Shown here: in pieces, positions 1 through 13,412 of the stretch
Numbering within the stretch: the stretch's first letter is position 1
Layout of the letters: the number at the start of each line of letters is the position of its first letter
Source of the DNA: Actinomycetota bacterium
GTDB taxonomy: Bacteria > Actinomycetota > Thermoleophilia > Gaiellales > Gaiellaceae
DNA: 13,412 nt
Reading direction: 5' to 3'
NCBI GenBank assembly: GCA_013694685.1
Contig: JACDBY010000336.1
Span: 1-13,412 of the forward strand
Notes under the pieces: model-generated
What the model saw: only the letters and a program-made list of their open reading frames with translations
Told to the model about the DNA's origin: nothing
Databases searched by the model: none
Made by a program: the position numbers and the translations under genes

Positions 1-86
1 GCCATCTCGCCGAGCTCCCGCATCCTGAACTCGACACCATTGCCTTCGATGGCCACCGGAAAGTCCTCACGAGCCAGCCCAGTCAT
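1..86 (-). CDS. Cupin-like protein, N-terminal fragment (partial)
   Basis: Only the first 28 codons lie in the window; the gene runs off the left edge. It reads MTGLAREDFPVAIEG and continues NGVEFRMRELGEM. The start is firm: ATG at 86-84 follows a GGAG ribosome site at 96-93, a promoter and a palindrome. The opening resembles small single-domain cupins that begin with a short Ala/Asp-rich leader and an E-R-x-E-G-M stretch, but the metal-binding His motifs would lie beyond the edge, so the family call is tentative. It is on the same strand as the deiodinase-like gene but about 254 bases downstream and has its own promoter, so it is probably transcribed separately. Confidence 0.45.
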   Translation of the reverse strand, partial: MTGLAREDFPVAIEGNGVEFRMRELGEM

Positions 87-96
87 GATGATCTCC

Positions 97-112
97 TTAG
101 TCGATTGACTAA
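97..112. promoter_or_regulatory. Palindromic operator at the cupin-gene transcription start
   Basis: TTAGTC-GATT-GACTAA is a perfect 6-bp inverted repeat with a 4-base centre. It lies between the -10 box and the ribosome site, over the predicted transcription start, where a bound repressor would block initiation. Its sequence differs from the TATA-type repeats elsewhere in the window, so a different regulator (TetR-, GntR- or MarR-like) probably binds it. Confidence 0.5.
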
Positions 113-340
113 ACCATTTGACCAAACCGTCCTGCCCGTGTCAAGCCCCAGCAGCCTGGAGCGCAGCTCGAACGGGCAGCAAAATGTCGCTCGTCCGGCG
201 TTCGGACCCTCTGCGCCGCACGTCCCGCGAAACGCGCACCTCCCGCGGCGCGCCGAGCGAATGCGCCGGCGTCTAGTGACGCCTCCAACGCTTGGGCGCA
301 CCCTCGAGAGCGCCTCTGGCAACACATCTACATCACGCGC
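113..340. other. Intergenic region between deiodinase-like and cupin-like genes
   Basis: There is no convincing gene on either strand here. The only structures seen are the promoter at 116-144 and a compact hairpin at 268-283, GGCGTC-TAGT-GACGCC, with a perfect 6-bp stem. The hairpin lies about 57 bases past the deiodinase-like stop codon. It has no T-tract on either side, so it is at best a weak or factor-dependent terminator. The remainder is GC-rich sequence without recognisable motifs. Confidence 0.4.
116..144 (-). promoter_or_regulatory. Sigma-70-type promoter of the cupin-like gene
   Basis: On the minus strand there is a perfect TTGACA -35 box (144-139) and a TCAAAT -10 box (121-116, 4 of 6 to consensus), separated by exactly 17 bases. 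Transcription would start near 109-108, giving a leader of about 23 bases with GGAG just before the ATG at 86. Confidence 0.6.
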
Positions 341-1078
341 TCACCCGTGCGACGGCGGGTGCTGGTTCCAGTACTCCAGACCGGCTTTCCAATCCTCGAC
401 CGCCTGCGGGCCATTCCCGTGGATATGGGCGACGACCTTGTCCCACACCCGCGGCCGAAAGCCGAGGAACTCGCAGTAGTTGGGCCCCACCTTCATGTTC
501 GAGAGGCGCTGCTCGGAGCGCGTCAGCTGGTAATCGAGGATCATCTGGAGCGCGTCCGCGTTCGTCCAGTCTGCGCGGTAGAGGATGCGGTTGCGGCGAC
601 CGATGACGTAGCACATATCGGGCAGCAACCCGAAGGCATGATGCACCGTTCCCTCGAGGTCGTCGACAAGGATCGTTCGCTGCACGCCGAGGCGATCGCG
701 GAAGGCCCGCGCGTGCTCGATCTTCTGCTCCATGCTCGTATGGCGCGGGAAATTCTCGCCGGGATGCGCCTCGCGCGTGAAGACGAAGAGGAACTCGAAC
801 CCCTTCGGTCGATACGCGTCTGCCAGAGCTTCCATGCCTGGACACGCCAGGGTGCAAAACGGTCAGGTGTAGCTGCCGAACTCGAGCACGACCGTGCTCT
901 CGCCGGTGTAATCGCTGAGGCGTACCGTCGCGCCGTCTTTCAGCCGCAGCGCCTCGAAGTCAGGGGCCGTCGTACCGACGCGCATCCGGCGCTGAAAATC
1001 GGCCCATTCCGCCTCGTCTGGGCCTGCGAGAAAGTTCGGGTAGTTGTACTCCGGATACTCGGGTGGCGGCTCGGTCAT
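341..1078 (-). CDS. Deiodinase-like selenoprotein, thioredoxin fold, in-frame UGA
   Basis: One frame runs from 1252 to the stop at 341, interrupted only by TGA at 865-863. Read through as selenocysteine (U), the centre is LEFGSYT-U-PFCTLACPG, matching the FGSCT-U-PPF active site of iodothyronine deiodinases. The part after the TGA continues the family: VFTREAHPG corresponds to the deiodinase EEAH segment, then DRL, VDD, FGLLPDMCYVI and ILYRADW. From the chosen ATG (1078) the protein is 245 residues with U72. An APDF and LSDYTG stretch before U72 is typical of AhpC/TSA-type thioredoxin folds, and about 60 residues extend past the core. U72-P-F-C75 forms a Sec-x-x-Cys pair, so a redox role is possible instead of deiodination. 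No signal peptide is evident. The start is uncertain because there is no good ribosome site: an in-frame ATG at 1252 would give 303 residues, but it lies upstream of the probable promoter. Gene callers would split or truncate this gene. A TGC-to-TGA mutation is the alternative. Confidence 0.8.
837..865 (-). promoter_or_regulatory. UGA codon and putative bacterial SECIS hairpin
   Basis: TGA is at 865-863. Sixteen bases later (minus strand) lies the hairpin CCTGG-CGTGT-CCAGG: stem 851-847 with 841-837, loop 846-842, perfect 5-bp stem. A weaker outer pairing of UUUU with GGAA across an internal loop may extend it. Known bacterial SECIS elements lie inside the coding sequence just after the UGA, with the apical loop about 16-37 bases away and a G among the first loop bases. 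Here the spacing is 16, the second loop base is G, and GU follows at positions 2-3. The structure was paired by eye and its stability was not computed. Confidence 0.55.
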
Positions 1079-1204
1079 GAGATCGAAGCGGTAGCCGGCG
1101 ACGGGGGGCAGTTGCTCCCCGGTACGCCCTTCCCCGTACAACACCGTCGCGTCAGGAATGGCTCGGCACTGATCCCGGACACCCGCAAACCACCTCGCTC
1201 GTGC

Positions 1205-1257
1205 TTGACCTTGGCCCTCGACTGCGAGAATATACCACCCGTATACGTACATCGCGA
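1205..1257. promoter_or_regulatory. Divergent promoter region of liv operon and deiodinase-like gene
   Basis: On the plus strand TTGACC (1205-1210) could be a -35 box, with GAATAT (1228-1233) 17 bases on as a weak -10 box for the importer. On the minus strand TGGTATATT (1237-1229) is an extended -10 element (TGn plus TATATT) that would start the deiodinase-like transcript near 1222, upstream of its ATG at 1078. Both elements overlap the inverted repeat at 1230-1246, so one bound protein could affect both directions. Confidence 0.45.
1230..1246. promoter_or_regulatory. TATA-type inverted repeat, operator copy 1
   Basis: ATATAC-CACCC-GTATAC: five of six positions per arm pair across a 5-base centre. 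It fits RTATAY-N5-RTATRY, shared with 5935-5951 and 12403-12419. It lies within the overlapping divergent promoters of the importer and the deiodinase-like gene. The GntR/FCD protein encoded at 8417-9160 is the likely binder (inference). Confidence 0.55.
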
Positions 1258-1276
1258 GCGAACCGGGGAGGCGACG

Positions 1277-2509
1277 ATGGACGACGCAGAGACTACCCTC
1301 ACACGGCGAGAAGTCTTAGAACGCGCGGGCGTGGCGGCCGCCATCATGAGCGTTCCAGCAGTCGACCGCTTGACCTCGGCGGCCGGCGCGGCCACGCGCC
1401 CGGCGCGGGCGTTGCGGATCGGCCAGCTCTTGACGCTGAGCGGCCCGCTCGGATCGGTGGGGCTCGACCTGCAGAAGGGCTTCGTGACCTACGTCCGCCA
1501 GAATGCGAGTCGCCTCGGCGGCCGGAAGATCCAGTTCTTCGTCGAGGACGACGCAGGCGATCCGCGCACGGCACTGCAAAAGGCCGAGAGACTCGTCAGC
1601 GAGCGCGAGGTCGACGTCGTCACGGGCGTCGTTTTGTCCAACGTCGCGATCGCCCTGCGCGACTTCTTCCACTCGGCCAAGGTTCCGCTCATCATCTCGA
1701 ATGCCGCGGCGGACGAGTTGACGCGCGGAGAGTCCTCGCCGTACATCTTCCGCGCCGCGTACACGAACTACATGATCGGCGCCTCGATGGGCCGATGGTT
1801 CTACCGGAACATCGCGAAGAACAACGTCTTCACGGCCGCCCCCAACTACTCGGCCGGCCAGGAGATCGTGGCCGGCTTCATCACCGCGTTCGAGCGGGCC
1901 GGGGGCAAGATCGGGGGGCGGGTGTTCCCGCCTTTCGGAACCGTCAGCGATTACCAGCCGTTCCTCTCCCAGATCCAGGGAGAGCGGCCGAGCGCGGTCT
2001 TCGCCTTCTTCCCGGGCGCCGAGGCCATCAGATTCGTCCGGCAGTACTCGGAGTTCGGCCTCAAGCGAACGATCCCGCTCCACGGCGCCTTCATCACCGA
2101 TCCGGCGCCGGTCCTGAATGCGCAGGGCAGCGCTGCGCAGGGGATCGGCTCGAGCGCGGTCTGGGCGGCAGAGCTGCAAAACCAGCGTAACGCGCGATTC
2201 CTCGCCACGTACGAAAGGCTCTACGGCAAGGGTGAGCCGTCGACATTCGCTGCAACCGGGCACAACGCGGCGCAGCTGCTCGATGTCGCACTCCGGTCGA
2301 TCAAAGGCGACACGAGCAATCAGGCGCGCTTCCTGAGGGCGTTGAAGAATGTCGGCACCTTCCAGACGCCGTCGGGGATCTTTACGCTCGATCCGAAGAC
2401 GCAAAACCCGATTCGCAACTTCTACCTCCGTCAAGCGCGGTTCGAGGACGGAAAGTGGCAGAACAAGCTGCTCTCCCTCCTCGGGAGCTTCCGCGATCCC
2501 GGCAGGTAA
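1277..2509 (+). CDS. livK: ABC transporter substrate-binding protein (LivK/Peripla_BP_6)
   Basis: This 410-residue binding protein of a branched-chain amino acid-type importer captures the ligand outside the membrane for the permeases encoded next. The N-terminus has a twin-arginine motif, TRREVL with R10-R11, then a hydrophobic stretch (about residues 16-27) and Ala-rich AAGA/ARA sites, suggesting Tat export or a lipid-free exported protein. The mature part opens with LRIGQLLTLSGPLG, the usual first strand and ligand loop of Peripla_BP_6, followed by FVEDDAGDP, ISNAAAD and the C-terminal lobe. The start at 1277 is set by GGGGAGG at 1265-1271; the open frame runs further upstream but only as a GC-rich extension. 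Ligands in this family include amino acids, aromatic acids and amides. The neighbouring CoA ligase and dehalogenase homologue point to an aromatic acid rather than leucine; this is inference from context. Confidence 0.9.
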   Translation: MDDAETTLTRREVLERAGVAAAIMSVPAVDRLTSAAGAATRPARALRIGQLLTLSGPLGSVGLDLQKGFVTYVRQNASRLGGRKIQFFVEDDAGDPRTALQKAERLVSEREVDVVTGVVLSNVAIALRDFFHSAKVPLIISNAAADELTRGESSPYIFRAAYTNYMIGASMGRWFYRNIAKNNVFTAAPNYSAGQEIVAGFITAFERAGGKIGGRVFPPFGTVSDYQPFLSQIQGERPSAVFAFFPGAEAIRFVRQYSEFGLKRTIPLHGAFITDPAPVLNAQGSAAQGIGSSAVWAAELQNQRNARFLATYERLYGKGEPSTFAATGHNAAQLLDVALRSIKGDTSNQARFLRALKNVGTFQTPSGIFTLDPKTQNPIRNFYLRQARFEDGKWQNKLLSLLGSFRDPGR

Positions 2510-2527
2510 TCGCCGAAGGCAGTCGCG

Positions 2528-3424
2528 ATGACCTTCGCTGCGGTCGGCGCGGCTCTGCCTGGACTTCTGAACGAGCACCTCGTCAGCATCCTGAACGGCC
2601 TCGCGGTTGGGATGCTGCTCTTCACGATGGCGGTGGGGCTCTCGCTGATCTTCGGTCTGATGGACGTCCTCAACCTCGCCCATGGTGCGATCTTCCTGCT
2701 CGGGGGCTACGTGGCTTTCCAGGTGATCGTGGGCGAAGGTCAGAGCTGGCTCGCCGGCCTCGCCGTTGCCGTCGGGTTCGGAGCTGTCGCCGGACTGGCT
2801 CTCGGCGGCATTCTCCGGCCGATCCGGCATCGCGGCCATCTCGATCAGGCGCTCCTCACCCTCGGCCTCGCGTTCGTGCTGTCTGATCTGGCCACCATCT
2901 TCTGGGGCAGCGACTTCCAGACGATCCCCTCCCCGGTCTTCCTCCAGCGCAGCGTCGAGGTGCTCGGCCAGTTCTACCCCGCGTACCGGCTCGCCGTGAT
3001 GGGCGTCGGCTTCGCGCTTGCGGTGGTGGTGTATCTGGTCGTGGAGCGGACGCAGGTCGGGGCGGTGCTCCGTGCTGCGGTGGAGGATCGGGCCATGGTC
3101 TCCGCTCTTGGCATCAACGTCGGCCGAGTGATGCTCGCCGTCCTCGCTCTCGGTACTGCCCTAGCGTCGTTCGGTGGCGTCATCGGGGCGCCGATCCTCA
3201 GCCTGAGTCCAGGAGTGGACGCGGAGGTGCTCATCCTGGCGCTGATCGTCATCGTCATTGGGGGGCTCGGCTCGATTCCCGGCGCGCTCGTCGGCGCGAT
3301 CGTGATCGGGCAGGTGCAGTCCCTCGGCACCGCGCTCGTCCCGCAGGTCGCTCCGTTCGCTCTCTTCGGCGCGATGGTGATCGTTCTCGCAGTCCGCCCT
3401 GAGGGGATTTTTGGAAGCCGATGA
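2528..3424 (+). CDS. livH: Branched-chain-type ABC transporter permease LivH
   Basis: This 298-residue membrane subunit forms half of the translocation channel of the importer. Hydrophobic segments cover most of the protein. The family hallmark FGLMDVLNLAHGAIFLLGGY lies near residues 40-59, and the C-terminal GGLGSIPGALVGAIVIG is the conserved coupling region that contacts the ATPases. The start follows AAGG at about 2516-2519 and lies 18 bases after the binding-protein stop. Its last codons overlap the next gene (ATGA), implying translational coupling. Confidence 0.92.
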   Translation: MTFAAVGAALPGLLNEHLVSILNGLAVGMLLFTMAVGLSLIFGLMDVLNLAHGAIFLLGGYVAFQVIVGEGQSWLAGLAVAVGFGAVAGLALGGILRPIRHRGHLDQALLTLGLAFVLSDLATIFWGSDFQTIPSPVFLQRSVEVLGQFYPAYRLAVMGVGFALAVVVYLVVERTQVGAVLRAAVEDRAMVSALGINVGRVMLAVLALGTALASFGGVIGAPILSLSPGVDAEVLILALIVIVIGGLGSIPGALVGAIVIGQVQSLGTALVPQVAPFALFGAMVIVLAVRPEGIFGSR

Positions 3425-4410
3425 GAGCGCTCGCTCCCGGTCGCGCTGCCCGGCTGGTGCAACTCGCCCTCGTCGCGCTGCTCGCCATGGCACCGCTGCT
3501 CCTCGGCGACTTCCGCCTCTTCCTGCTCACCGAGATCCTTATCTTCGGCCTCTTCGCGGCCAGCCTCGATCTCCTCGTCGGCTACACGGGATTGCTCTCG
3601 CTCGGTCACGCCGCGTACCTCGGCGTCGGCTCCTACGCGACGGCGCTCATCGCGATCCACCTGACTGACAACGTCTTCGCCGGAATCGCCGCCGCCGTAC
3701 TCTCGAGCGGCGTCGTGGCCGCCGCGACCGGCTGGCTCGCCGTCCGCACCCGAGGCGTCTACTTTCTGATGCTCACGCTCGCGTTCGCGCAACTGCTCTT
3801 CACGCTCGCGATCACGTGGGACTCGCTGACGCACGGCGCGAACGGATTGCCGACTCCGAAGCCGACGCTCGGACCGGGCGACGGCGGAGGAGCGCTCGAC
3901 GGCGGTACCGCTTTCTACTACTACGCGCTCGTCGCGTTCCTGATCGGATTCGGCCTGCTGCGGGCAATCGTCGCCTCGCCGTTCGGCAGGACCCTCGTCG
4001 GTATTCGTGAGAATGAGGCGCGCATGCGGTCGCTCGGCTACGGCGTCGCCCGGTACAGGCTCGCAGTGTTCTGCATTGCGGGCGCAGTTGCAGGGTTTGC
4101 CGGATCGCTGACGGTCCAGCACTCGAATTACATGTCGCCGAGTGGCATCTCGTTCGAGGTCTCCACACTGGCGCTAATTGCCGTCATCATCGGCGGGCGG
4201 GCGACGCTCGTCGGCGCCGTTCTTGGCTCGGCCTTCGTCTTCATCATTCGCGACGAGCTCTCCTCGGCCTTCAACGAGCACTGGCGTCTGGTGCTGGGCG
4301 TCGTGTTCATCGGAGTCGTCTACCTGCTGCCGCGCGGGCTCAGTGGTTTGCCGGCGAGGACCGGGCTGCTCTCGCGCCGGATCCAGACGACGGCGGGCGG
4401 GTCGGCGTGA
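3421..4410 (+). CDS. livM: Branched-chain-type ABC transporter permease LivM
   Basis: This 329-residue membrane subunit is the second permease and partners LivH. The signature GYTGLLSLGHAAYLGVGSYA near residues 57-76 is the standard LivM motif, and several further hydrophobic helices follow. The IRENEARMRSLGY segment and the later GGRATLVGAVLG match the cytoplasmic coupling loops of the family. It starts at an ATGA overlap with livH and ends in a GTGA overlap with livG. Length is normal for the family. Confidence 0.92.
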   Translation: MRALAPGRAARLVQLALVALLAMAPLLLGDFRLFLLTEILIFGLFAASLDLLVGYTGLLSLGHAAYLGVGSYATALIAIHLTDNVFAGIAAAVLSSGVVAAATGWLAVRTRGVYFLMLTLAFAQLLFTLAITWDSLTHGANGLPTPKPTLGPGDGGGALDGGTAFYYYALVAFLIGFGLLRAIVASPFGRTLVGIRENEARMRSLGYGVARYRLAVFCIAGAVAGFAGSLTVQHSNYMSPSGISFEVSTLALIAVIIGGRATLVGAVLGSAFVFIIRDELSSAFNEHWRLVLGVVFIGVVYLLPRGLSGLPARTGLLSRRIQTTAGGSA

Positions 4411-5204
4411 TCCCCGGCATCGAGCGGGTCAGTCCGACCGTGCTCGAACTCAGCGACGTCAGCAAGCGGTACGGCGACCTGCTCGTGCTCGAAGCGGTGT
4501 CGCTGTCGGTTGATGCGGGAGCGCGGCATGCGCTGATCGGCCCGAACGGCGCCGGCAAGTCGACCCTGTTCCACGTGATCACGGGCACCGAACGCGTGAC
4601 CCGCGGCCGGATCGTCTTCGGCGGCAAGGTGATCACGACGCTACAGGAGCACCGCCGAACACAGCTCGGTCTGGGAAGGACGTTCCAGCAGACCAGCCTC
4701 TTCGACGGGCTGAGTGTGATCGCCAACGTCGAGCTTGCGGTGCAGCAGCGATCCGGTCTTGCGCACCGCCTCTTCCCATCGTCGCGGGGCAGGACGCGGG
4801 TGAACGAGCGTGCGCGGGAGCTGCTCGAGCTCGTCGGCCTAGAGCCGAGGGAGGCGATCCTGGCCGGCGCCCTTTCCCATGGCGAGCGTCGCCAGCTCGA
4901 CGTTGCCGTGTCGCTCGCGACGAACCCCACGCTCGTTCTCATGGACGAGCCGACAGCCGGCATGTCGCGTGACGAGGCCATGTCCTTTCTCTCCATGATC
5001 GCCTCACTGCCGGCCTCGCTGACAATCCTCATGGTCGAACACGACATGGATGTCGTCTTCGAGCTGGCGACGTGGATCTCTGTCCTCGACGCGGGCAAGC
5101 TCATCGCCGACGGGACGCCGGAGGCGATCCGCGGCTCGCGTGAGGTGCAGGACGCATACCTCGGCGAAGGCGAGCATATCGCGAAGCTCTTCGGACCTGT
5201 GTGA
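4407..5204 (+). CDS. livG: ABC transporter ATP-binding protein LivG
   Basis: This 265-residue ATPase powers the importer with LivF. All nucleotide-binding elements are present: Walker A GPNGAGKST (45-53), Q-loop Gln94 in RTFQQTSLF, signature LSHGE (156-160), Walker B LVLMDEP with Glu181, and H-loop His212 in MVEHD. The GLGRTFQ phrase is characteristic of LivG rather than LivF. It begins with GTG overlapping the livM stop (GTGA) and has a few extra N-terminal residues before the usual LELSDVSKRYG opening. Confidence 0.92.
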   Translation: MIPGIERVSPTVLELSDVSKRYGDLLVLEAVSLSVDAGARHALIGPNGAGKSTLFHVITGTERVTRGRIVFGGKVITTLQEHRRTQLGLGRTFQQTSLFDGLSVIANVELAVQQRSGLAHRLFPSSRGRTRVNERARELLELVGLEPREAILAGALSHGERRQLDVAVSLATNPTLVLMDEPTAGMSRDEAMSFLSMIASLPASLTILMVEHDMDVVFELATWISVLDAGKLIADGTPEAIRGSREVQDAYLGEGEHIAKLFGPV

Positions 5205-5917
5205 TGTCGGAGGCTCTGCTCGACGTTCGCGACCTGCGCGCCGGGTACCGTCGCAGCGTCGTCCTCCAAGGTGTCGACCTCGCAGTACGAGAGGGAGAGG
5301 TCGTGGCGCTGCTCGGACGCAACGGCGTCGGGAAGACGACGCTCGTTCACTCGATCATGGGACTCGTCCGGCCCTCGTCGGGATCGATCCGCTTCGACGG
5401 CCAAGAGCTTTCCGGCCGCACGCCCGATCAGATCGCGCGTCGCGGGCTCGCGCTCGTGCCGCAGGGCCGGCGGATCTTCTCGCGGCTGAGTGTCGAGGAA
5501 AACCTGAAGCTCGCGCACCGATCGCGGAACGGCGGTCACGACCTCGATTCGGTCTACGAGCTCCTGCCGCGCCTCCACGAGCGTCGGCGGCACCGTGGCC
5601 GCCAGCTCTCTGGAGGCGAGCAGCAGATGCTCGCGATCGGTCGTGCTTTGCTGGCCAATGCGCGTCTCGTCCTGTTCGACGAGCCGTCGGAGGGCCTGGC
5701 GCCCAAGGCGGTAGACCAAATTGCCAGCGTGATCGCCGGCCTGCGGGAGCAGAAACTGTCGGCCCTGCTCGTCGAGCAGAACCTCCATGTGGCCCTCAAG
5801 CTCGCAGACGCGGTCAACGTCATGACCAAGGGTGAGATCGTGTACCGCGCGACGGTCGACGAGTTTCGTAGCGACCCCAAGGCGGCGCGCGCGTTCCTCG
5901 GCGTCGGCCAGGTGTAG
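5204..5917 (+). CDS. livF: ABC transporter ATP-binding protein LivF
   Basis: This 237-residue second ATPase of the importer has Walker A GRNGVGKTT (38-46), a LVPQGRRIF Q-loop region typical of LivF, signature LSGGEQQM, Walker B LVLFDEPSEGLAP and H-loop VEQN. The ATG at 5204 overlaps the livG stop (TGATG); a GTG one codon earlier is a less likely alternative. It closes the five-gene importer operon: a perfect hairpin follows the stop at once, and the next gene has its own operator-like repeat. Confidence 0.92.
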   Translation: MSEALLDVRDLRAGYRRSVVLQGVDLAVREGEVVALLGRNGVGKTTLVHSIMGLVRPSSGSIRFDGQELSGRTPDQIARRGLALVPQGRRIFSRLSVEENLKLAHRSRNGGHDLDSVYELLPRLHERRRHRGRQLSGGEQQMLAIGRALLANARLVLFDEPSEGLAPKAVDQIASVIAGLREQKLSALLVEQNLHVALKLADAVNVMTKGEIVYRATVDEFRSDPKAARAFLGVGQV

Positions 5918-5932
5918 GAGCGGCTGCCGCTC
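5918..5932 (+). terminator. Hairpin directly after livF
   Basis: GAGCGG-CTG-CCGCTC is a perfect 6-bp stem with a 3-base loop beginning on the base after the livF stop. The T-tract is imperfect (a TTTT comes 9 bases later), so it may be a leaky terminator or an mRNA-stabilising 3' end. It separates the importer transcript from the dehalogenase-ligase pair. Confidence 0.45.
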
Positions 5933-5934
5933 AG

Positions 5935-5951
5935 GTATATGTTTTATATGC
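5935..5951. promoter_or_regulatory. TATA-type inverted repeat, operator copy 2
   Basis: GTATAT-GTTTT-ATATGC, extended by one G/C pair outside, with one mismatch between arms. It fits the RTATAY-N5-RTATRY pattern shared with 1230-1246 and 12403-12419. It lies 35 bases upstream of the dehalogenase-like start codon, implying separate control of that gene and the ligase. I see no convincing -35 box, so an activator-dependent promoter is possible. Confidence 0.5.
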
Positions 5952-5986
5952 CACCGCAAGACAGAGAACGGAAGGAGCACACCGAC

Positions 5987-6799
5987 ATGGCCGAGTACGA
6001 GCGAATTTCTCTCGACGTTGCCAACGGCGTCGCGACGTTGACCTTCACGTTGCCGGAGGTGGCCAACGCCCTCGACATCGACGCGCTCAAGGAGGTGATG
6101 GACGCCCTGTACCGGATCGAGAAGCGCGACGACGTCGGTGCACTCGTGCTCACGGGCGAGGGCGACAAGGCGTTCTGCGCGGGGATCAATCTCAAGGAGG
6201 TTCCGCTCGACGAAGGCGATGCCGAAATCGATCATCACTTCCGCTACAAGGCGATGTGGTGGCACCAGGTCATGCACAAGCTGACCCGCATCCGCCTGCC
6301 GGTGCTCTCCGCAGTCAACGGCATCGCCGCCGGCGGAGGCTTCGGAATCGTCCTCGCGTCCGATATGGCGGTCTGTGTTGACTCGGCGCGCTTTCTCTGC
6401 TCCTGGCACGCGAACGGGGTCGCGAACGACGGAGCCACGAGCTACACGCTCGCGAAGATCGTCGGCTTCCGGCGAGCGATGCAGATGATGCTGACGAACC
6501 AGACGCTCGAGGCCGAGGAGGCATGCGATTGGGGGATCGTCAACCGCGTCTATCCGCAGGCCGAGTTCGCCCAGCACGTCGCGGCGATCGCAGCCGACCT
6601 CGCCGCGGGCCCGACCCATCTCCAGGCGATGGCAAAGGAACGCTTCCACATGGGCTGGCGCCAGTCGATCGAGGAGTGCACCGAGTTCGAGATCCAGAAC
6701 ATCATGGACTCACTCGCACACCCGTACTTCAAGGCCAGCCTGCGCCGGTTCGTCAACAAGGAGGGGCGCAACGACCAGGTGAAGGTGAGGCTGCCGTGA
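5987..6799 (+). CDS. fcbB: 4-chlorobenzoyl-CoA dehalogenase-like enzyme
   Basis: This 270-residue crotonase-fold protein would replace a ring halogen of an aroyl-CoA with hydroxyl in the cytoplasm. The two glutamates of true enoyl-CoA hydratases are missing (Gly120 and Trp140 instead). The residues of Pseudomonas 4-chlorobenzoyl-CoA dehalogenase are present with a constant offset of 3: nucleophile Asp148 (family Asp145) in VANDGATS, base His93 (His90) in MWWHQVMH, Trp92, His97, Trp140 and Phe85. The oxyanion-loop phrases AFCAGINL and NGIAAGGG are intact. The C-terminal stretch from PTHLQAMAKERFH through EECTEFEIQN is also dehalogenase-like. Ile67 replaces the substrate-contacting Phe64, so the substrate may differ. 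The start is set by GAAGGAG at 5971-5977, 9 bases before ATG; an earlier in-frame ATG at 5939 lies inside the operator. The gene overlaps the CoA ligase start by 4 bases. Residue numbers for the reference enzyme are from memory. Confidence 0.8.
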   Translation: MAEYERISLDVANGVATLTFTLPEVANALDIDALKEVMDALYRIEKRDDVGALVLTGEGDKAFCAGINLKEVPLDEGDAEIDHHFRYKAMWWHQVMHKLTRIRLPVLSAVNGIAAGGGFGIVLASDMAVCVDSARFLCSWHANGVANDGATSYTLAKIVGFRRAMQMMLTNQTLEAEEACDWGIVNRVYPQAEFAQHVAAIAADLAAGPTHLQAMAKERFHMGWRQSIEECTEFEIQNIMDSLAHPYFKASLRRFVNKEGRNDQVKVRLP

Positions 6800-8379
6800 C
6801 GTCGGCGGAGGTGGCGCTGCCGGCCGGCTTCCTCGAGATCCCCGAACGCCTGAACATCGCCGACCGGATCGTCAGCAGGCATGTGCGCGAGGGTCACGGC
6901 GACCGCCCCGCGCTTCAATGCGAGGGCGCTTCACTCACGTATGCGGAACTCGACGAGCGTTGCAACAGGGCGGGAAACGCGCTGATCGCGCTCGGTCTCG
7001 AGCAGGGGGACCGGTTCATGATTCGGGCTCAGAACTCGCTCGACTACGCGGCCACCGTGCTCGGGGGCATAAAGATCGGCGCCGTGCCAATTCCCTCCAA
7101 CACGCTCTTCCGAGCGTGGGAGGTCGGGCACACGATCACGAACAGCGACTCGAAGCTCGTGCTCACGGGAGCCGAGGTGCGAGAGCCGGTCGATGAGGTC
7201 GCGTCCGAGTGCCCGACCCTGCGCAATGTCCTCGTGCTCGACTCCGAGTTCGCAGAGCTGATGGCGCACGCCTCACCCGAGCTCGATGCCGCCGACACCG
7301 CCGCGGACGATCCTGCATACGCCATCTACACGTCGGGCTCGACCGGAAAGCCAAAAGGCGTCGAGCACGCACACCGAATGATCGTTGCGGCGGGCGACCC
7401 AGTGGCGCACGTCCAGCTCAGGTTGACCGCAGACGACCACATGATGGTGCCGATCGAGCTCAGCTCGCTGATCACGCTCGACTTCAGCATCTTTTGGCCG
7501 CTCTCGGTCGGCGGGCAGGGATCGCTCTTCTGCGGCCGGTTCGATCCGGCTCGGTTCCTGGCCGAAGTAGAGCGGCTGAAGCTGACGATCTTCATGGGCG
7601 TTCCGACAATGTTCCGCTTTCTGCTCTCCGTTCCGGACGTCGAGCGTTACGACCTGAGCTCGGTGCGGATGACGCTCGTCGGCGGCGAACCGCTGCCCGA
7701 GGACACCTACCGAGCTGTCAAACGGACCTTCGGTTTCGAGATGTACGAGATGATCGGCTCGACCGAGGGGCACCCGTACATCGCCAACGTCGTCGGCCGC
7801 CCTCCCAGAGTGGGCTCGATGGGCCGTTCCCTTGAAGGCAGACGCTGCGCGATCCTCGACGAGACCGGTCGCGAGCTCCCCCTGGGCGAGGTCGGGCACC
7901 TCTGTCTCGCCTCCGACGATCCGGCGCTTGCGCTCGGCTACCGGAAGCAGGAGGAACAGTGGAGAGCGATGCATCGCGGGGGCTGGTTCTACTCGGGCGA
8001 TCTCGCGCACCGCGACGACGATGGCTACTTCTGGTTCCATTCACGGGCCGACGACGTGATCCTGAGCCGGGCGTACCGCATTTCCCCTGGCGAGGTCGAG
8101 GCCGCCACGATGACGCATGCGGACGTGCTCGAGAGCGCCGTTGTCGGCGTTGCTGACGCCGAACTCGGGCAGCGCGTCAGGGCCTATGTCGTAGTGAAGC
8201 CCGGTCGAGCCCCGTCGGAGGAACTGGCGGAGGAAATCCGCGAGACCGTCCGCGCGGTCATCGCCCCCTACAAGGTGCCGAAGGAGATCGAGTTCGTGGC
8301 GGAGCTGCCGAAGACGATGAGCGGCAAGATCCAGCGCAAGGTTCTCCGAGAGCGAGCCGCCTCGGAAGTAGATGCGTGA
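6796..8379 (+). CDS. AMP-forming CoA ligase, benzoate/chlorobenzoate type
   Basis: This 527-residue acyl-adenylate-forming enzyme converts a carboxylic acid, ATP and CoA to acyl-CoA, AMP and pyrophosphate. Its motifs are in order: P-loop YTSGSTGKPKG (178-188), YEMIGSTEG (317-325), YSGD (399-402), hinge and CoA-binding SRAYRISPGEVE (424 on), and catalytic Lys511 in TMSGKIQRK. The N-terminus (ERLNIADRIV to GDRPALQCEG) and SNTLFRAWEVGHTITNSDSK resemble benzoate-CoA ligases more than acetyl-CoA synthetases. It starts at a GTG overlapping the dehalogenase stop (GTGA), so the two are translationally coupled, in the same dehalogenase-then-ligase order as fcbB-fcbA of Pseudomonas. It would supply the aroyl-CoA the dehalogenase needs. 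A non-halogenated aromatic or cyclic acid is the alternative substrate. Confidence 0.85.
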   Translation: MTSAEVALPAGFLEIPERLNIADRIVSRHVREGHGDRPALQCEGASLTYAELDERCNRAGNALIALGLEQGDRFMIRAQNSLDYAATVLGGIKIGAVPIPSNTLFRAWEVGHTITNSDSKLVLTGAEVREPVDEVASECPTLRNVLVLDSEFAELMAHASPELDAADTAADDPAYAIYTSGSTGKPKGVEHAHRMIVAAGDPVAHVQLRLTADDHMMVPIELSSLITLDFSIFWPLSVGGQGSLFCGRFDPARFLAEVERLKLTIFMGVPTMFRFLLSVPDVERYDLSSVRMTLVGGEPLPEDTYRAVKRTFGFEMYEMIGSTEGHPYIANVVGRPPRVGSMGRSLEGRRCAILDETGRELPLGEVGHLCLASDDPALALGYRKQEEQWRAMHRGGWFYSGDLAHRDDDGYFWFHSRADDVILSRAYRISPGEVEAATMTHADVLESAVVGVADAELGQRVRAYVVVKPGRAPSEELAEEIRETVRAVIAPYKVPKEIEFVAELPKTMSGKIQRKVLRERAASEVDA

Positions 8380-8416
8380 GCGGCCGAGAGGCGCCGCGGC
8401 CCGAGGAAGCGGTCGG

Positions 8417-9160
8417 CTAAGGCTCGCCGTGAGTCGAGGGCGAGACGAGCGCAAAGTCCTCGTCGGTCAAGGTGAAATTCTTGATCGCGTCGGAATCGAG
8501 GTACCTCTGGACACGCCGCCGGAAGAGCCGCACGTGGGCCGTCGAGACACGCTCGGCCTCATCCGCATCGTGGGCCGTTAAGGCAGCGATCATCTCGTCG
8601 TGGTGCGTGCAGACAGCGTCGAAGTGCTCGCTGAGCTCGCTCCACTCTCCCCCGCCGCCACCGAAGCAGAGGTAGGCGAGGCGCTGACCCTGGTCGTGAA
8701 TCGACTCGGCCATGCTCTCGAGGTGCTGGTTGCAGGCTGCCGCGGCCTCGAGCCGATGCAGCTCGGCGTTCGCCGCGGTGATCGCCAGGTAGTCGCGGTT
8801 TTCGATTGCGACCCTGACAACGGCCGCCTGCTGCGACAGGAGCTCGATGTCAGCGGCGGTGGCGCGACTCGCTGCGAGCCGCGCGACGGCCTTGGCGAGA
8901 ACGACATGCGCTTCGAAGAGGTGAGTGATGTCGATGAGGTCGAGCGGACGCACGATAAAACCTGCCTTCGTGCGAATGTCCACTAGGCCTTCGGCTCCGA
9001 GCAGGAAGATGGCCTCGCGCACGGGTGTCCGGCTGAAGGCCAGCTCGACACTGAGCTGATAGTCGTCGATCCTCTCGCCCGGCTCCAGCTCGAGCGTGAT
9101 GATCCGCCGCTTGATCTCGTCATAGGCCCGCTGCATGAGCAGGCGATCTTTACGCGGCAT
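8417..9160 (-). CDS. GntR-family regulator with FCD domain
   Basis: This 247-residue DNA-binding regulator has an N-terminal winged helix (about residues 8-72), including LEPGERIDDYQLSVEL, SRTPVREAI and AGFIVRPL, which is the standard GntR helix-turn-helix and wing. An all-helical FCD ligand domain follows, with likely metal or ligand histidines in ELHRL, HHDEMIAAL and TAHVRLF. Members usually repress catabolic genes until an organic acid or acyl-CoA binds. It is the last gene of a three-gene minus-strand operon, 48 bases after the alcohol dehydrogenase, and converges on the CoA ligase with a 37-base gap. The start is ATG at 9160 with purine-rich GAGAGGG 6 bases upstream. I infer that it binds the three TATA-type repeats, one of which precedes its own operon. 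Confidence 0.88.
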   Translation of the reverse strand: MPRKDRLLMQRAYDEIKRRIITLELEPGERIDDYQLSVELAFSRTPVREAIFLLGAEGLVDIRTKAGFIVRPLDLIDITHLFEAHVVLAKAVARLAASRATAADIELLSQQAAVVRVAIENRDYLAITAANAELHRLEAAAACNQHLESMAESIHDQGQRLAYLCFGGGGGEWSELSEHFDAVCTHHDEMIAALTAHDADEAERVSTAHVRLFRRRVQRYLDSDAIKNFTLTDEDFALVSPSTHGEP

Positions 9161-9208
9161 CTCCGGCCCTCTCTCGCGTGACTACTGATCCCGGAGGCAG
9201 CTTAATGC

Positions 9209-10249
9209 TCACGGCTTGAGCGTCATCTTGCCGACATTCGCCCGCTCGTCCAGCAGCCGGTGCGCTTCGGCGGCGCGCTCGAGCGGAAACACGTCGCTGA
9301 TGACCGGCTTGATCTTCCCCCAAGCGATGAGTTCGAGGATGGTGGAGAGCTCGCCGGCGGAGGGACTGGCAACGCCATAAATCTCGGTCTCGCGATAGAG
9401 CATCCGGGCGACGCTCACTCTCGTCGGCTCGATCCCGAGCTCGCCGACGAAGACGAGCCGGCCGCCGCGGGCCAGAGAACGGAGGCTGAGGCTGCTGGTC
9501 GCCTGTCCGACGCAGTCGATGACGATCTCGACGCCGCGTCCTTGCGTCAGCTCACGTACTCGCTCGAGCACCTCTTCCGGGCTACCCGTAAGGACCTCAT
9601 CGGCGCCGTTCGCCTCGATCAGCTTCGCTTTGGCGGGCGACGTTGTCGCGGCGAGCACGCGCGCCCCGGCGAGCGCGGCGAGCTGAACCGCATGGATCCC
9701 CGCACCGCCACCGGCCCCTGTCACGAGCACGGTGTCTCCTGGACGCACCCGGCCCTTTTCTCGCACCGCCCGGTACACCGCACCGAGGACGCAGCCGGCA
9801 AACGACGCGGCCTCGTCGTCGACGCCGTCCGGGATCTCGCTCAAGCTGGCTGGGGGCAGCACCACGTACTCCGCGTACCCACCGTTGCGCTCGACGCCGA
9901 CGCCATGCACGTTGGTACAGAAGATGCTGCGTTCGTCTCGGCAGTAATGGCAGTGCCCGCAAGGCGCGCGGTAGGTCGAGGCGACGCGGGTTTCCGGGGC
10001 AAAGCCCGTTACGTTGCGACCGTGGTCTACGACCTCCCCGGCGATCTCGTGCCCGAGAATCAGCGGCAGCTCGATCCCTGGCCGAATCCCGCGTCTGATG
10101 ATCGAGTCGAGGTAACAGACCGAGCACGCGCGCACGCGCACGAGGACCTCGTCCGGTGTCGGCTCGGGCACCGGCACCTCCCGAAGCGACCCCAAGACCT
10201 CGGGTCCTCCGAAGGACTCGAGAAGCACTGCTCTCATGGATTCTGCCAT
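9209..10249 (-). CDS. Zinc-dependent alcohol dehydrogenase-family oxidoreductase
   Basis: This 346-residue medium-chain dehydrogenase/reductase has catalytic zinc ligands Cys45, the GHE pair His67-Glu68 and probably Cys152. The structural zinc lobe is complete: Cys96, Cys99, Cys102 and Cys110 in PCGHCHYCRDERSIFC. The nucleotide-binding Rossmann motif is VTGAGGGAGIHAVQLA (about 175-190). It oxidises an alcohol or hydroxyacyl-CoA, or reduces an enoyl-CoA, using NAD(P); relatives include both kinds and the sequence does not decide. The start is ATG at 10249, overlapping the upstream stop (TGATG), with a strong AGGAGG 10 bases before it. A second ATG at 10237 lacks such a site. Operon position suggests it modifies the same acyl chain or ring as its neighbours. 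Confidence 0.85.
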   Translation of the reverse strand: MAESMRAVLLESFGGPEVLGSLREVPVPEPTPDEVLVRVRACSVCYLDSIIRRGIRPGIELPLILGHEIAGEVVDHGRNVTGFAPETRVASTYRAPCGHCHYCRDERSIFCTNVHGVGVERNGGYAEYVVLPPASLSEIPDGVDDEAASFAGCVLGAVYRAVREKGRVRPGDTVLVTGAGGGAGIHAVQLAALAGARVLAATTSPAKAKLIEANGADEVLTGSPEEVLERVRELTQGRGVEIVIDCVGQATSSLSLRSLARGGRLVFVGELGIEPTRVSVARMLYRETEIYGVASPSAGELSTILELIAWGKIKPVISDVFPLERAAEAHRLLDERANVGKMTLKP

Positions 10250-12387
10250 CAGCTGCGTTCCTCCTTCTCTAGCACGATGAGGGCGTCGACAGCGACCGCC
10301 CCGAGACGTTCGGGACGAACGAGGAGCGGGTTGACTTCAGCTTCAACCACGGTCGGCGGCGCGACGAGAATGAACCTCGACAGTGCAAGCAGCGCCTGCA
10401 CGAGCGCCCCGACGTCGGCCGCCGGCCGGCCGCGAACACCCTCGAGCACGCGGGCGCCACGTACCTCGTCGATCATTGCCCGCGCGTCCGCAGCGGTGAG
10501 CGGCGCCGCACGGACGGACACGTCGCGAATGGTCTCCACGAAGATCCCGCCCATCCCGAAGACGACGAGCGGACCGAGCCGGGGATCGCGGCGGGCGCCG
10601 ATGATCGTCTCCACGCCGTCGATCATCGGCTGGATCAACAGCCGCGCGTTCTTTGCTCCGAGCTTGGGGGCGAGCGCGAGGAATTCGTCCGCCGCCTCTG
10701 CGACGGCGGCTGCCAACGCGAGAGCGACGCGTACGGCGCCGACTTCCGTCTTGTGGGCCAACTCGGCGGCGACGAGCTTGAGCACGACCGGATAGCCGAT
10801 CTCGGCAGCGGCCCCCACCGCCTCGTCGGCGGTCCCGACGACACGCTCCTCGACGGTGGTCAGCCCCGCGGCGGCGAGGATCCGCTTCGCCACATCCTCG
10901 GCGACCGTTCCGCTCCCGCGCGGCAGCGGGAGCAGGGTGAGCGGCGCAGCCTGCTCGCGCTCGAGCTCCCCTACCCGCTCCAGAGCCCGTTGCCGGCAGA
11001 CGAGTGCCTCCAACACGCGTACCGCGGTCAGCAGGCTCCGGCAGACGCCGACATTGGCCTCGCGGAGCGTGCGTCTCCACATCGCCAGGGGCTCGTCCTC
11101 ACCGAAGGGCCAGGCGACGATCGGCTTCGTGCTCCTCTGAGCGACCCGTACGAAGGCTTCGAGCTCCGTGGGGGCGAAGAAGTCGAACGCGAGCGGCATG
11201 AAGAGCACCGCGTCAACAGCGTCGTCTTCGAGCAGCACCTCAAGTGAGTGTGCAATCGTCCGCTCGAGCCCCCGCAGCTCGACCGTCGACCACACGTCGA
11301 CTGGATTCTGCGGCTTGAGCCAGCTCGGATAGAGCTCAGCCAATCGGGCCGTCGTGCGCTCGGACAACGTCGTAAGCCGCAGGCCGCGCCTCGAGAAGAG
11401 ATCGGCTGCGACGACGCCGGCGGCCCCGCTGAACGTCAGGACCGCGATCGAGTTGCCACAGGCGCGTACGGCGAGCCTCGACAGCGGATCGGCGATGTCC
11501 ACGAGCTCCATAAAATCCTCCACCTGAAGGACGCCGTGCTGACGCAGCAGGCCGGCTACGGCGGCCTCCCCCGCCGCGATGGAACCCGTATGGCTGAGGG
11601 CCACCTCCGCTCCGCTCTGCGACAGGCCGCCGACAAGTGCGAGCAACGATGCGCGCGTCGCGGCTCGGTCGCAGGCCGTCGCGAACCGAGGCCCGTCTTG
11701 AACCGACTCGAGGTAGAGGGCGATCACCTCGGATGAGGCGTCCTCCGCAAGGTACTCGAGCAGATCGGATTCGTCGACGTCGCACTTGTTGCCGATCGAG
11801 CAGGCCTTGTTGATCTGAAATCGATCCTGCGTGAGAATCTGGATGAGCAGCGCAGCGGCCATCATCCCGCTCTGGGCGACGAACGAGACGTTCCCCGGCT
11901 CGAAGCTGCCCGGCGTGACGACAAAGGAGGTCGAGAGCGGCGGGCTCGTGGACACGTAGCCCGCACAGTTGGGACCCCACACTCGTGTCGTCGTGCCCGC
12001 GACGACCTGCTCGAGCTCCGTCTGCAGGCGCTCGCCCGTCGGACCCGCGTCGGCGAAGCCCCCGGACTCGATGCAGACGGCCTTCACGCTTTTCTCGACA
12101 CATTCGCGAACTACAGCGGGAACCGCGTCGGCGGGAATGAAGACGACAGCGAGGTCGACCTCGCCGGGAACGTCCAGCACGGACGAATAGCTCTTCAAAC
12201 CGAGCACGCTCTCCGCGTTCGGGTTAACGGCGTAGAGCTCGCCCGTGAAATGGCAGCTGAGGTTCTTCAGGATCCGATGGCCACCTCGCGCGGTATTCGG
12301 CGACGCGCCGATGACGGCGATCGAGGTGGGCTCGAAGAATGCGCGGAGGTTTGCCGTGCGCTCAGCGGTCGAGACAGGCAAGGTCAC
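10249..12387 (-). CDS. NDP-forming acyl-CoA synthetase (fused alpha-beta type)
   Basis: A protein of about 712 residues that interconverts acyl-CoA plus NDP and phosphate with the free acid and NTP, saving energy as ATP. A CoA-binding Rossmann domain opens with FFEPTSIAVIGASPN. A succinyl-CoA ligase-like domain follows, with WGPNCAGY, FVAQSGMM and the phosphorylated-His motif LSHTGSIAAGE (His266). A C-terminal ATP-grasp domain (about 490-710) includes YPVVLKL, HKTEVGAV and VEAEVNPLLV. The fused order matches ADP-forming acetyl-CoA synthetases, whose substrates include aryl and branched acids. The open frame extends to ATG 12468, but that would run through the operator and into the H-protein gene. 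GTG at 12387 or TTG at 12381 is more likely, though neither has a clear ribosome site. It is the first gene of the operon, overlapping the dehydrogenase. Confidence 0.85.
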   Translation of the reverse strand: MTLPVSTAERTANLRAFFEPTSIAVIGASPNTARGGHRILKNLSCHFTGELYAVNPNAESVLGLKSYSSVLDVPGEVDLAVVFIPADAVPAVVRECVEKSVKAVCIESGGFADAGPTGERLQTELEQVVAGTTTRVWGPNCAGYVSTSPPLSTSFVVTPGSFEPGNVSFVAQSGMMAAALLIQILTQDRFQINKACSIGNKCDVDESDLLEYLAEDASSEVIALYLESVQDGPRFATACDRAATRASLLALVGGLSQSGAEVALSHTGSIAAGEAAVAGLLRQHGVLQVEDFMELVDIADPLSRLAVRACGNSIAVLTFSGAAGVVAADLFSRRGLRLTTLSERTTARLAELYPSWLKPQNPVDVWSTVELRGLERTIAHSLEVLLEDDAVDAVLFMPLAFDFFAPTELEAFVRVAQRSTKPIVAWPFGEDEPLAMWRRTLREANVGVCRSLLTAVRVLEALVCRQRALERVGELEREQAAPLTLLPLPRGSGTVAEDVAKRILAAAGLTTVEERVVGTADEAVGAAAEIGYPVVLKLVAAELAHKTEVGAVRVALALAAAVAEAADEFLALAPKLGAKNARLLIQPMIDGVETIIGARRDPRLGPLVVFGMGGIFVETIRDVSVRAAPLTAADARAMIDEVRGARVLEGVRGRPAADVGALVQALLALSRFILVAPPTVVEAEVNPLLVRPERLGAVAVDALIVLEKEERS

Positions 12388-12402
12388 GTCACGACCGATT
12401 CC

Positions 12403-12419
12403 ATATATGTAAGATATAT
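12403..12419. promoter_or_regulatory. TATA-type inverted repeat, operator copy 3
   Basis: ATATAT-GTAAG-ATATAT is a perfect 6-bp inverted repeat with a 5-base centre, sharing the RTATAY-N5-RTATRY pattern of 1230-1246 and 5935-5951. It lies in the 53-base divergent gap between the acyl-CoA synthetase (GTG 12387) and the H-protein gene (ATG 12441). TATATT at 12415-12420 could serve as the plus-strand -10 box. Binding here would control both directions, including the operon that encodes the GntR regulator, giving autoregulation. Confidence 0.55.
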
Positions 12420-12440
12420 TGCTGACCCAGCGATTGCCAG

Positions 12441-12833
12441 ATGACTCCTTCCGATCGCCGCTATACACCTGAGCACCAGTGGATCCGTGTCGAATCGTCG
12501 AGCCGCTTGCTCGTCGGAGTGACGGATTTTGCCCAGAGTCAGCTCGGAGAGATCAGCTTCGTCGACGTTCCCGCGACCAACGTGCGCCTCCGGGCCAGCG
12601 AGCCGTTCGGGACGATTGAGTCGCTCAAGGCAGCATCGGACCTGTTCGCGCCGGTCTCGGGTGAGATCGTCGGTGTGAACCCCGAGATCGCCGTCTCACC
12701 CGAGCGGATCAACAACGATCCGTACGGGATCTGGCTGATCGCAATCGACCCGGACGACGCGACCGCTGTGGAGACGCTGCTAACTGCTGAGCAGTACGAC
12801 GAGCTCACCAGCGCGACCTCAGGCGTCGAGTAG
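12441..12833 (+). CDS. gcvH: Glycine cleavage system H-like lipoyl carrier protein
   Basis: This 130-residue protein is of normal H-protein length. It opens RRYTPEHQWIRVE, as in classical H proteins (YTxEHEW), and has VGVTDFAQSQLGEISFVDVP. The lipoylated lysine is Lys63 in TIESLKAASDLFAPVSGEI. In glycine cleavage it carries the aminomethyl group between P, T and L proteins. No T, P, L or lipoate-ligase gene is in this window, so it is a stand-alone copy, and it shares a divergent operator with the catabolic operon. The ATG has no ribosome site and a short predicted leader. Its 3' end overlaps the convergent thioesterase gene by 15 bases. Confidence 0.9.
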   Translation: MTPSDRRYTPEHQWIRVESSSRLLVGVTDFAQSQLGEISFVDVPATNVRLRASEPFGTIESLKAASDLFAPVSGEIVGVNPEIAVSPERINNDPYGIWLIAIDPDDATAVETLLTAEQYDELTSATSGVE

Positions 12834-13259
12834 TGCCGGCGGCTGCGGCCCCGCCGTCATCAGCAGGCGCCGGGTCTCGTCTGACCACTTCGTCGGCCTT
12901 CCATGCTCGTCGCGGAGGACGGCCACGAAGCGAAGCTGCGCACAGATCTCACTGCTGCGACTGATGTCGGCCCGGTAGGTGACGGACGTCCTGCCAACTT
13001 CCGCGACCTCGAGCACGATCTCCGCGAGCTCGTTGAACCGGAGGGGCAAGCGAAAGTCCACAGTGATGTGCACCCGTGGCATCCGCCCGTAGCTGTCCTC
13101 GAGCAGACCGAGCCGATCGAGGAGGATCCGCTCAGCCCACTCGACGAGCCGCAGGGCCGCTGTGTTGTGCCAGTGACCCGAGGCGTCGGTGTCTGCCCAT
13201 TCGATCCTGCGCTCGAGCCGTACCGACGCGCGGGAAGGGTGCTCGCCGAGAGTCGACAT
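12819..13259 (-). CDS. 4HBT-family (hotdog) acyl-CoA thioesterase
   Basis: This 146-residue hotdog-fold protein would hydrolyse an acyl- or aroyl-CoA thioester. RRIEWADTDASGHWHN near residues 17-32 matches the D-x-D-x-x-G-x-x-x-N site of Pseudomonas-type 4-hydroxybenzoyl-CoA thioesterase; Asp25 corresponds to catalytic Asp17. The following LRLVEWAERILL and HITVDFRLPLRFNELAEI are the central helix and next strand of the fold. It could release the product of the dehalogenase, as FcbC does. It is not in the same operon, however, but lies 31 bases behind a hydantoinase B-type gene, so its true substrate is open. The start is ATG at 13259, with no obvious ribosome site; an in-frame ATG at 13328 would lie inside the upstream gene. 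Confidence 0.8.
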   Translation of the reverse strand: MSTLGEHPSRASVRLERRIEWADTDASGHWHNTAALRLVEWAERILLDRLGLLEDSYGRMPRVHITVDFRLPLRFNELAEIVLEVAEVGRTSVTYRADISRSSEICAQLRFVAVLRDEHGRPTKWSDETRRLLMTAGPQPPALLDA

Positions 13260-13290
13260 GGGGCAGAGTGCTCGCGCCGGCGCCGGGCGC

Positions 13291-13412
13291 TCAGGTGGAG
13301 CGTTCAACTGGTCCCCAGCCTCCCCCACCCGGCGTGCTGACCGTCACGAGGTTCCCGGGCTCGAGCGCTCGGCTCACCTTTGCGGGCAATGTCTCCTCGT
13401 CGAGGAGGTTGC
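13291..13412 (-). CDS. Hydantoinase B/oxoprolinase-family protein, C-terminal end (partial)
   Basis: Thirty-nine codons and a TGA stop are visible; the gene enters from the right edge. The end reads LPAKVSRALEPGNLVTVSTP followed by GGGGWGPVE. This is the conserved C-terminus of HyuB-type subunits (K-V, then L-x-P-G, then T-P-G-G-G-G-W/Y-G). The family includes N-methylhydantoinase, 5-oxoprolinase and acetone or acetophenone carboxylase subunits, which hydrolyse or carboxylate with ATP. The specific reaction cannot be told from this fragment. The same-strand thioesterase begins 31 bases after the stop and is probably cotranscribed. Confidence 0.75.
   Translation of the reverse strand, partial: NLLDEETLPAKVSRALEPGNLVTVSTPGGGGWGPVERST

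What the first reader, a model, noticed from the sequence alone, without database searches (positions are those of the whole stretch)
341..1078. Bacterial deiodinase-like gene with in-frame UGA at the selenocysteine position
Two adjacent minus-strand open frames are in the same frame and separated by a single TGA at 865-863. Joined, they give FGSYT-U-PF, aligning the TGA with Sec of iodothyronine deiodinases (FGSCT-U-PPF). Family features flank both sides, including REAHPG downstream. A random mutation is unlikely to fall on exactly that codon while the downstream half stays intact. Standard annotation would lose or split it.
Basis: partly seen in the sequence, partly recalled or inferred. Interest (0 to 1): 0.9.

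Follow-up and report, generated by a model that had tools for sequence, protein, structure and literature searches.

The report
Bacterial deiodinase-like selenoprotein gene
A soil-type bacterium carries a gene for a deiodinase-like redox protein in which one stop codon very probably encodes selenocysteine; the protein family is already known in bacteria, so this is a sound new member and not a new kind of thing.

Summary
Minus strand 1078-341 is one frame broken only by TGA 865-863. Read through, it gives 245 residues matching Pfam T4_deiodinase (53.7 bits, cut-off 27).

In the 79 named genome loci kept (a capped list, from 100 that encode a relative), this codon is TGA in 68, Cys in 9, Gly in 1, a gap in 1. 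The nearest, Candidatus Gaiellasilicea maunaloa (90% identical), has TGA and the same upstream transporter genes. The part after the TGA is under purifying selection (dN/dS 0.07).

A small hairpin with G in its loop starts 11 bases after the TGA. Such a stem arises in 0.7% of synonymous shuffles of the window; 40 of 76 TGA loci have one against 5.4 expected, 0 of 9 Cys loci do. By folding energy alone the window's hairpin is ordinary.

selA/B/C/D were not found in the window's own MAG, but it is incomplete and partly masked; relatives have them.

UxxC deiodinase-like selenoproteins have been in print since 2005. New member of a known kind, probably a thiol/selenol oxidoreductase; substrate unknown.

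The parts
341..1078 (-). Deiodinase-like gene, 245 residues with UGA read through; ATG 1078-1076, closing TGA 343-341
   Evidence: PF00837 53.7 bits; start supported by L104
863..865 (-). In-frame UGA, predicted Sec72
   Evidence: TGA at this codon in 68 of 79 named loci, Cys in 9, Gly in 1, gap in 1
854..856 (-). Codon of Cys75, the second half of the U-P-F-C motif; resolving role inferred
   Evidence: Translation; position computed from the frame
837..851 (-). Predicted bacterial SECIS hairpin: 5-bp stem CCTGG/CCAGG, loop CGTGT (G second), loop starting 16 bases after the UGA
   Evidence: fold; synonymous shuffles; covariation; energy alone not significant
755..775 (-). REAHPGE motif, residues 102-108
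   Evidence: Invariant in the 35 sequences of alignment A2; EAHP shared with Dio3 and Dio2
1277..5917 (+). Context only: divergent branched-chain amino acid type ABC transporter genes (binding protein, two permeases, two ATPases)
   Evidence: Pfam; 85.4% DNA identity to L104 over window 336-4072, so conserved as neighbour as far as that locus was held

Best explanation
The gene encodes a thioredoxin-fold, deiodinase-like selenoprotein (PF00837, UxxC type). The UGA at 865-863 is read as selenocysteine by SelB carrying Sec-tRNA-Sec, guided by the hairpin at 851-837. Sec72 attacks an oxidised (or halogenated) substrate, Cys75 resolves the intermediate as an intramolecular selenenyl-sulfide, and a cellular thiol system reduces it. 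Shown here by comparison: family, conservation of the UGA, purifying selection on both sides, hairpin. Inferred: Sec insertion in this organism, the resolving role of Cys75, the redox chemistry. Substrate and cell location are not known and were not tested.
For: PF00837 over cut-off only when read through; TGA on the same codon in 68 of 79 loci with Cys in 9; TGA in the 90% identical, syntenic L104; dN/dS 0.143 before and 0.071 after the TGA; hairpin in 40 of 76 TGA loci v 5.4 expected and 0 of 9 Cys loci, window p 0.007 by synonymous shuffles; covariation score 0.231 v 0.136 +/- 0.019; selB over cut-off in 12 of 13 TGA genomes v 1 of 9 Cys genomes, tRNA-Sec of 64 bits or more in 12 of 13 v 1 of 9; Dio3 and Dio2 first among solved structures.
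Against: No selA/B/C/D over cut-off in the searchable part of the window's MAG. Window hairpin not unusual by folding energy (30 of 60 synonymous shuffles as good; z -0.15). No Rfam match around it. 36 of 76 TGA loci lack a perfect stem by the strict rule. The number of stem pairs with changes on both sides (2) is reached by 59 of 500 shuffles. Related loci are not independent; 7 of the 9 Cys loci are from records labelled archaeal, so the Cys comparison is confounded by descent.
Confidence: 0.94

Rival explanations
1. Pseudogene or sequencing error: a Cys codon has become TGA in this strain or assembly, and nothing is read through.
For: No Sec machinery over cut-off in the own MAG; Cys at the site in 8 of the 10 full-length-size homologues listed.
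Against: TGA at the same codon in 68 of 79 loci, including the 90% identical L104; downstream dN/dS 0.071; hairpin enrichment.
Confidence: 0.02
2. The TGA is a true stop and the downstream frame is expressed from its own ATG 835 as a separate protein of 164 residues.
For: Prodigal-like callers report such pieces: many 164-170-residue homologues; an ATG lies at 835.
Against: That piece would lack the active site and stays below the PF00837 cut-off (20.8 v 27); Cys relatives encode one continuous protein across the site.
Confidence: 0.02
3. UGA is decoded here by something other than Sec insertion (for example a suppressor tRNA inserting Cys or Trp).
For: No Sec machinery found in the searchable part of the own MAG.
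Against: selB tracks the TGA form across genomes (12 of 13 v 1 of 9); SECIS-like hairpin enriched; this gene itself ends in TGA.
Confidence: 0.02

Closest known systems
Prokaryotic deiodinase-like selenoprotein, PF00837, UxxC (Sargasso Sea 2005 PMC1088965; GOS 2008 PMC2398784; reviews PMC9312934 and PMC13188914)
   Same: Pfam family, in-frame UGA with Cys homologues, UxxC motif, hairpin after the UGA with G in a small loop (passages)
   Different: Nothing essential seen; the host is a Gaiellales-type bacterium, and I did not compare residue by residue with the published sequences
Vertebrate iodothyronine deiodinases Dio2/Dio3 (4tr3, 9h48)
   Same: Domain match at E 1.1e-18 (Dio3) and 2.9e-15 (Dio2) with a profile of relatives; EAHP motif; Sec/Cys position
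   Different: U-P-F-C instead of C-P-P-F in the matched chains; bacterial hairpin inside the gene; no evidence for a thyroid-hormone substrate
ResA/TlpA-like thiol-disulfide oxidoreductases and AhpC/TSA peroxiredoxins
   Same: Thioredoxin-like active-site region and CxxC/UxxC layout
   Different: Lower scores than deiodinases and matches that cover mostly the N-terminal half; ResA model NF002854 31.2 of 170 bits

Membership tests
Prokaryotic deiodinase-like selenoprotein (PF00837, UxxC) | PF00837 score over the curated cut-off | tested here: met
   53.7 v 27 bits
Prokaryotic deiodinase-like selenoprotein (PF00837, UxxC) | In-frame UGA opposite Cys of homologues | tested here: met
   68 TGA, 9 Cys of 79 loci; 8 full-size proteins with Cys
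Prokaryotic deiodinase-like selenoprotein (PF00837, UxxC) | UxxC motif | tested here: met
   U72-P-F-C75
Prokaryotic deiodinase-like selenoprotein (PF00837, UxxC) | Bacterial SECIS hairpin just after the UGA, small loop with G | tested here: met
   Present; 0.7% of synonymous shuffles have it, 40 of 76 loci v 5.4 expected; not unusual by energy alone
Prokaryotic deiodinase-like selenoprotein (PF00837, UxxC) | Sec machinery in the genome | tested here: inconclusive
   Not found in the own, incomplete and partly masked MAG; selB in L104's genome, 328.9 bits
Prokaryotic deiodinase-like selenoprotein (PF00837, UxxC) | Sec actually inserted | not testable with these tools
   Needs protein chemistry
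NCBIfam NF038285 deiodinase_rel | Score over the curated cut-off | tested here: not met
   74.5 v 250 bits
Iodothyronine deiodinase (animal) | U-P-P-F active site | tested here: not met
   U-P-F-C
Iodothyronine deiodinase (animal) | Reductive deiodination of thyroid hormones | not testable with these tools
   Needs an enzyme assay

The most novel reading that the evidence does not exclude
The UxxC deiodinase-like selenoproteins, seen here in records labelled Chloroflexi, Actinobacteria, Acidobacteria and several proteobacterial groups, are true reductive dehalogenases of environmental organohalides, so that animal deiodinases share their chemistry, not only their fold, with bacteria.
Probability: 0.08. 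Interest if true: 0.65.

Novelty: new member of a known kind. Interest (0 to 1): 0.36.

Why it matters
It corrects annotation: gene callers cut this gene and many of its relatives into a short piece without the active site, so a widespread selenoprotein family goes unnamed in many genomes. It adds a Gaiellales-type bacterium to its hosts. If the bacterial enzymes prove to dehalogenate, they would bear on the origin of thyroid-hormone deiodinases.

Tried and rejected
Rejected: pseudogene or error, two separate proteins, other decoding of UGA (see rivals). Not used as evidence: the SECIS_1 (RF00031) search of the own genome, which found nothing but rang in none of the 14 control genomes either; Rfam over the whole window at gathering cut-offs and around the hairpin at E up to 10, no match in either. 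Folding-energy tests of the window alone were not significant. tRNA-Sec matches near the cut-off were not counted, because the best match of G000 (46.7 bits) is tRNA-Ser by ARAGORN; I ran ARAGORN on the eight G000 loci L001-L008 only, so the '45 of 61' and '14 of 22' over cut-off mix tRNA-Sec with probable tRNA-Ser.

Paper searches: Gaiellales with selenocysteine gave one unrelated paper, deiodinase with Chloroflexi and selenocysteine one metazoan paper; listings only. These few searches do not show that nothing is in print.

Selections and dropped rows. The 79 loci are a capped list (155 stretches matched a pattern, 100 encode a relative, best 80 kept), ranked by likeness to a Sec-form query, so TGA forms may be over-represented. 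One search also examined 30 loci: 5 had no match over the codon, 8 had TGA (the window's own copy among them), 8 Cys and 9 Thr; the Cys and Thr ones look like other thioredoxin-fold proteins and were not counted in 68 of 79. In some searches the TGA set is 76 (68 + 8) and the Cys set 9; L123 (gap) and L172 (Gly) were left out. Alignment A3 for covariation is 25 of the 76, picked by hand for a like stem register and protein context; this favours the structure. In one search the control slid by 45 bases gave 10 of 76 stems, the other four slides 0 to 2. The 22 genomes were picked by me from the 79 loci to cover both codons. One search listed 120 of its 156 hits.

Full report
Observation. On the minus strand, 863..1252 and 341..835 are listed as separate frames. 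They share one frame, and reading TGA 865-863 through gives 245 residues from ATG 1078 to the closing TGA 343-341, with U at position 72. The close relative L104 has an in-frame stop 10 codons before the matching ATG and no start codon between, which supports ATG 1078 as the start.

Family. The read-through product matches Pfam T4_deiodinase at 53.7 bits (cut-off 27), AhpC-TSA at 48.9 (26) and Redoxin at 43.5 (26.6); no match of either half alone reaches these cut-offs. A profile of 35 relatives matches Dio3 (4tr3, E 1.1e-18) and Dio2 (9h48, E 2.9e-15) first among solved structures, then thioredoxin-family and ResA chains. REAHPGE is invariant in the 35 sequences, and its EAHP aligns with EAHP of Dio3 and Dio2. 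The active site is U-P-F-C, not U-P-P-F. The product does not reach the cut-off of NCBIfam deiodinase_rel (74.5 of 250 bits).

Conservation of the TGA. Of 156 homologous proteins 120 were listed; 10 of these exceed 200 residues. Of the ten, eight have Cys opposite U72, one has Gly (P0075) and one lacks the N-terminal part (P0101). The ten short ones aligned begin after the U. In named genomes 79 loci were kept (capped, from 100 that encode a relative): TGA on this codon in 68, Cys in 9, Gly in 1, a gap in 1. TGA forms come from records titled Chloroflexi, Dehalococcoidia, Acidobacteria, Actinobacteria, Deltaproteobacteria, Betaproteobacteria, Rhodospirillales and others. Of the nine Cys loci, four are from haloarchaea, three from MAGs labelled archaeal and two from bacteria. 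Among the 60 other genomes of the relatives set, seven more genes have TGA at this codon (G005, G006, G012, G019, G023, G035, G049).

Nearest relative. L104, Candidatus Gaiellasilicea maunaloa (Actinomycetota, Thermoleophilia, Gaiellales), is 90% identical, has TGA at the same codon, and shares window 336-4072 at 85.4% DNA identity, the first transporter genes included. Between the two, dN/dS is 0.143 before the TGA and 0.071 after it: the part after the stop is kept as protein.

Hairpin. Eleven bases after the TGA comes stem CCTGG, loop CGTGT, stem CCAGG. The loop starts 16 bases after the TGA and has G second, which fits the description of bacterial SECIS elements (a small apical loop with a guanosine; passages of PMC1088965). 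I asked for at least 5 Watson-Crick pairs, a loop of 3-6 starting 14-20 bases after the TGA, and G among its first two bases. The window passes, and 0.7% of 2000 synonymous shuffles pass. Of 76 TGA loci 40 pass, expected 5.4 (sd 2.2); of 9 Cys loci 0 pass, expected 0.0. The same test slid downstream by 45, 60, 90, 120 and 150 bases gave 10, 0, 1, 1 and 2 of 76. With G-U allowed and at least 6 pairs, 53 of 76 v 8.8 expected; Cys 0 of 9. On 25 hand-picked sequences of like register, 95.2% of cells pair (shuffles 89.8) and the covariation score is 0.231 v 0.136 +/- 0.019; slid versions score 0.015 to 0.052. Two of 5 pairs change on both sides, which 59 of 500 shuffles also reach. Against: by folding energy alone the window is ordinary (30 of 60 synonymous shuffles as good; z -0.15), the loci are related to one another, and the Cys loci are mostly archaeal.

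Sec machinery. In the window's MAG (2.56 Mb, 493 contigs, 86.68% complete, 4.57% contamination) nothing passes the cut-offs for selB (best 99.7 of 242.25 bits), selD (36.8 of 125), selA (no match) or tRNA-Sec (46.7 of 47; that one is tRNA-Ser). This is weak evidence of absence: 8 of 26 arbitrarily sampled G000 contigs read N in the part taken, about 14% of the sampled contig length by my addition. In the 61-genome set (G000 included) selB passes in 33, selD in 46 and selA in 34; of the six same-genus genomes, five pass for all three and one (G003) for selD only. Of the seven other relatives with a TGA gene, selD passes in 7, selA in 5 and selB in 4. Of 22 genomes of named loci, selB passes in 12 of 13 TGA genomes (not that of L124) and 1 of 9 Cys genomes. 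A tRNA-Sec match of 64 bits or more occurs in 12 of 13 and 1 of 9. The thirteenth, L104's genome, has a 45.5-bit partial match at the end of the contig that also holds its selB.

Which organism? The contig may be mis-binned or acquired. It is closer to L104 (85.4%) than three core-type stretches of G000 are to that genome (79.7-81.6%, 81.6% and 71.6% in their longest pieces). The adjacent binding protein's best match in the other 60 genomes is 88.6 bits at 27% identity, against 900.7 for itself. Its G+C is 66%, against 68-72% in nine unmasked G000 pieces. Tetranucleotide correlation with pooled G000 pieces (0.98) does not set it apart. Either way, the gene fits a Gaiellales-type bacterium whose near relative has selB.

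Comparison with print. I saw passages by term search, not whole papers. PMC1088965 (2005) reports Sec and Cys forms of bacterial deiodinase-like proteins with bacterial SECIS elements and suggests a redox function. PMC2398784 (2008) lists a deiodinase-like family, pfam00837, with 22 in its first count column. The reviews PMC9312934 and PMC13188914 list deiodinase-like protein, PF00837, UxxC. So the finding is correct and the family is known.

Mechanism. Most likely SelB-dependent Sec insertion guided by the hairpin, and a selenol that reduces its substrate with Cys75 as resolving thiol. The chemistry is inferred from general knowledge of UxxC/CxxC thioredoxin-fold enzymes. The neighbours (ABC transporter, enoyl-CoA hydratase, AMP-binding enzyme, GntR/FCD regulator, alcohol dehydrogenase-like protein, thioesterase-like protein) suggest uptake and breakdown of carboxylic acids, but only the first transporter genes are shown to be conserved neighbours, in L104, so I draw no function from them.

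Noticed in passing
L019, L020, L021, L023, L024 (genomes G012, G019, G035, G005, G049): A second subtype with FGSYT-U-PPF, like the animal deiodinase motif, in relatives of the window's genome, beside the UxxC subtype of G006. L020's second TGA lies near the C-terminal end and may be its normal stop.
   Followed up: partly
G044, G047, G050, G052, G057 (selD genes): selD matches with one in-frame TGA in five of the 61 genomes searched, as expected if SelD is itself a selenoprotein there; the position of the TGA was not looked at.
   Followed up: no
window 1-13412: The contig may not belong to its MAG: higher identity to L104 than other G000 stretches have to that genome, lower G+C, and no close counterpart of the binding protein in 60 relatives.
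   Followed up: partly
window 347-2509 (+) and L104 1564-3732 (-): A frame of about 720 codons runs open from the binding-protein gene back across the antisense of the deiodinase gene in both genomes; probably a side effect of high G+C.
   Followed up: no
L172, P0075, L123: Relatives with Gly at the Sec position (L172, P0075) or a deletion over the active site (L123): possible non-redox or decayed members.
   Followed up: no
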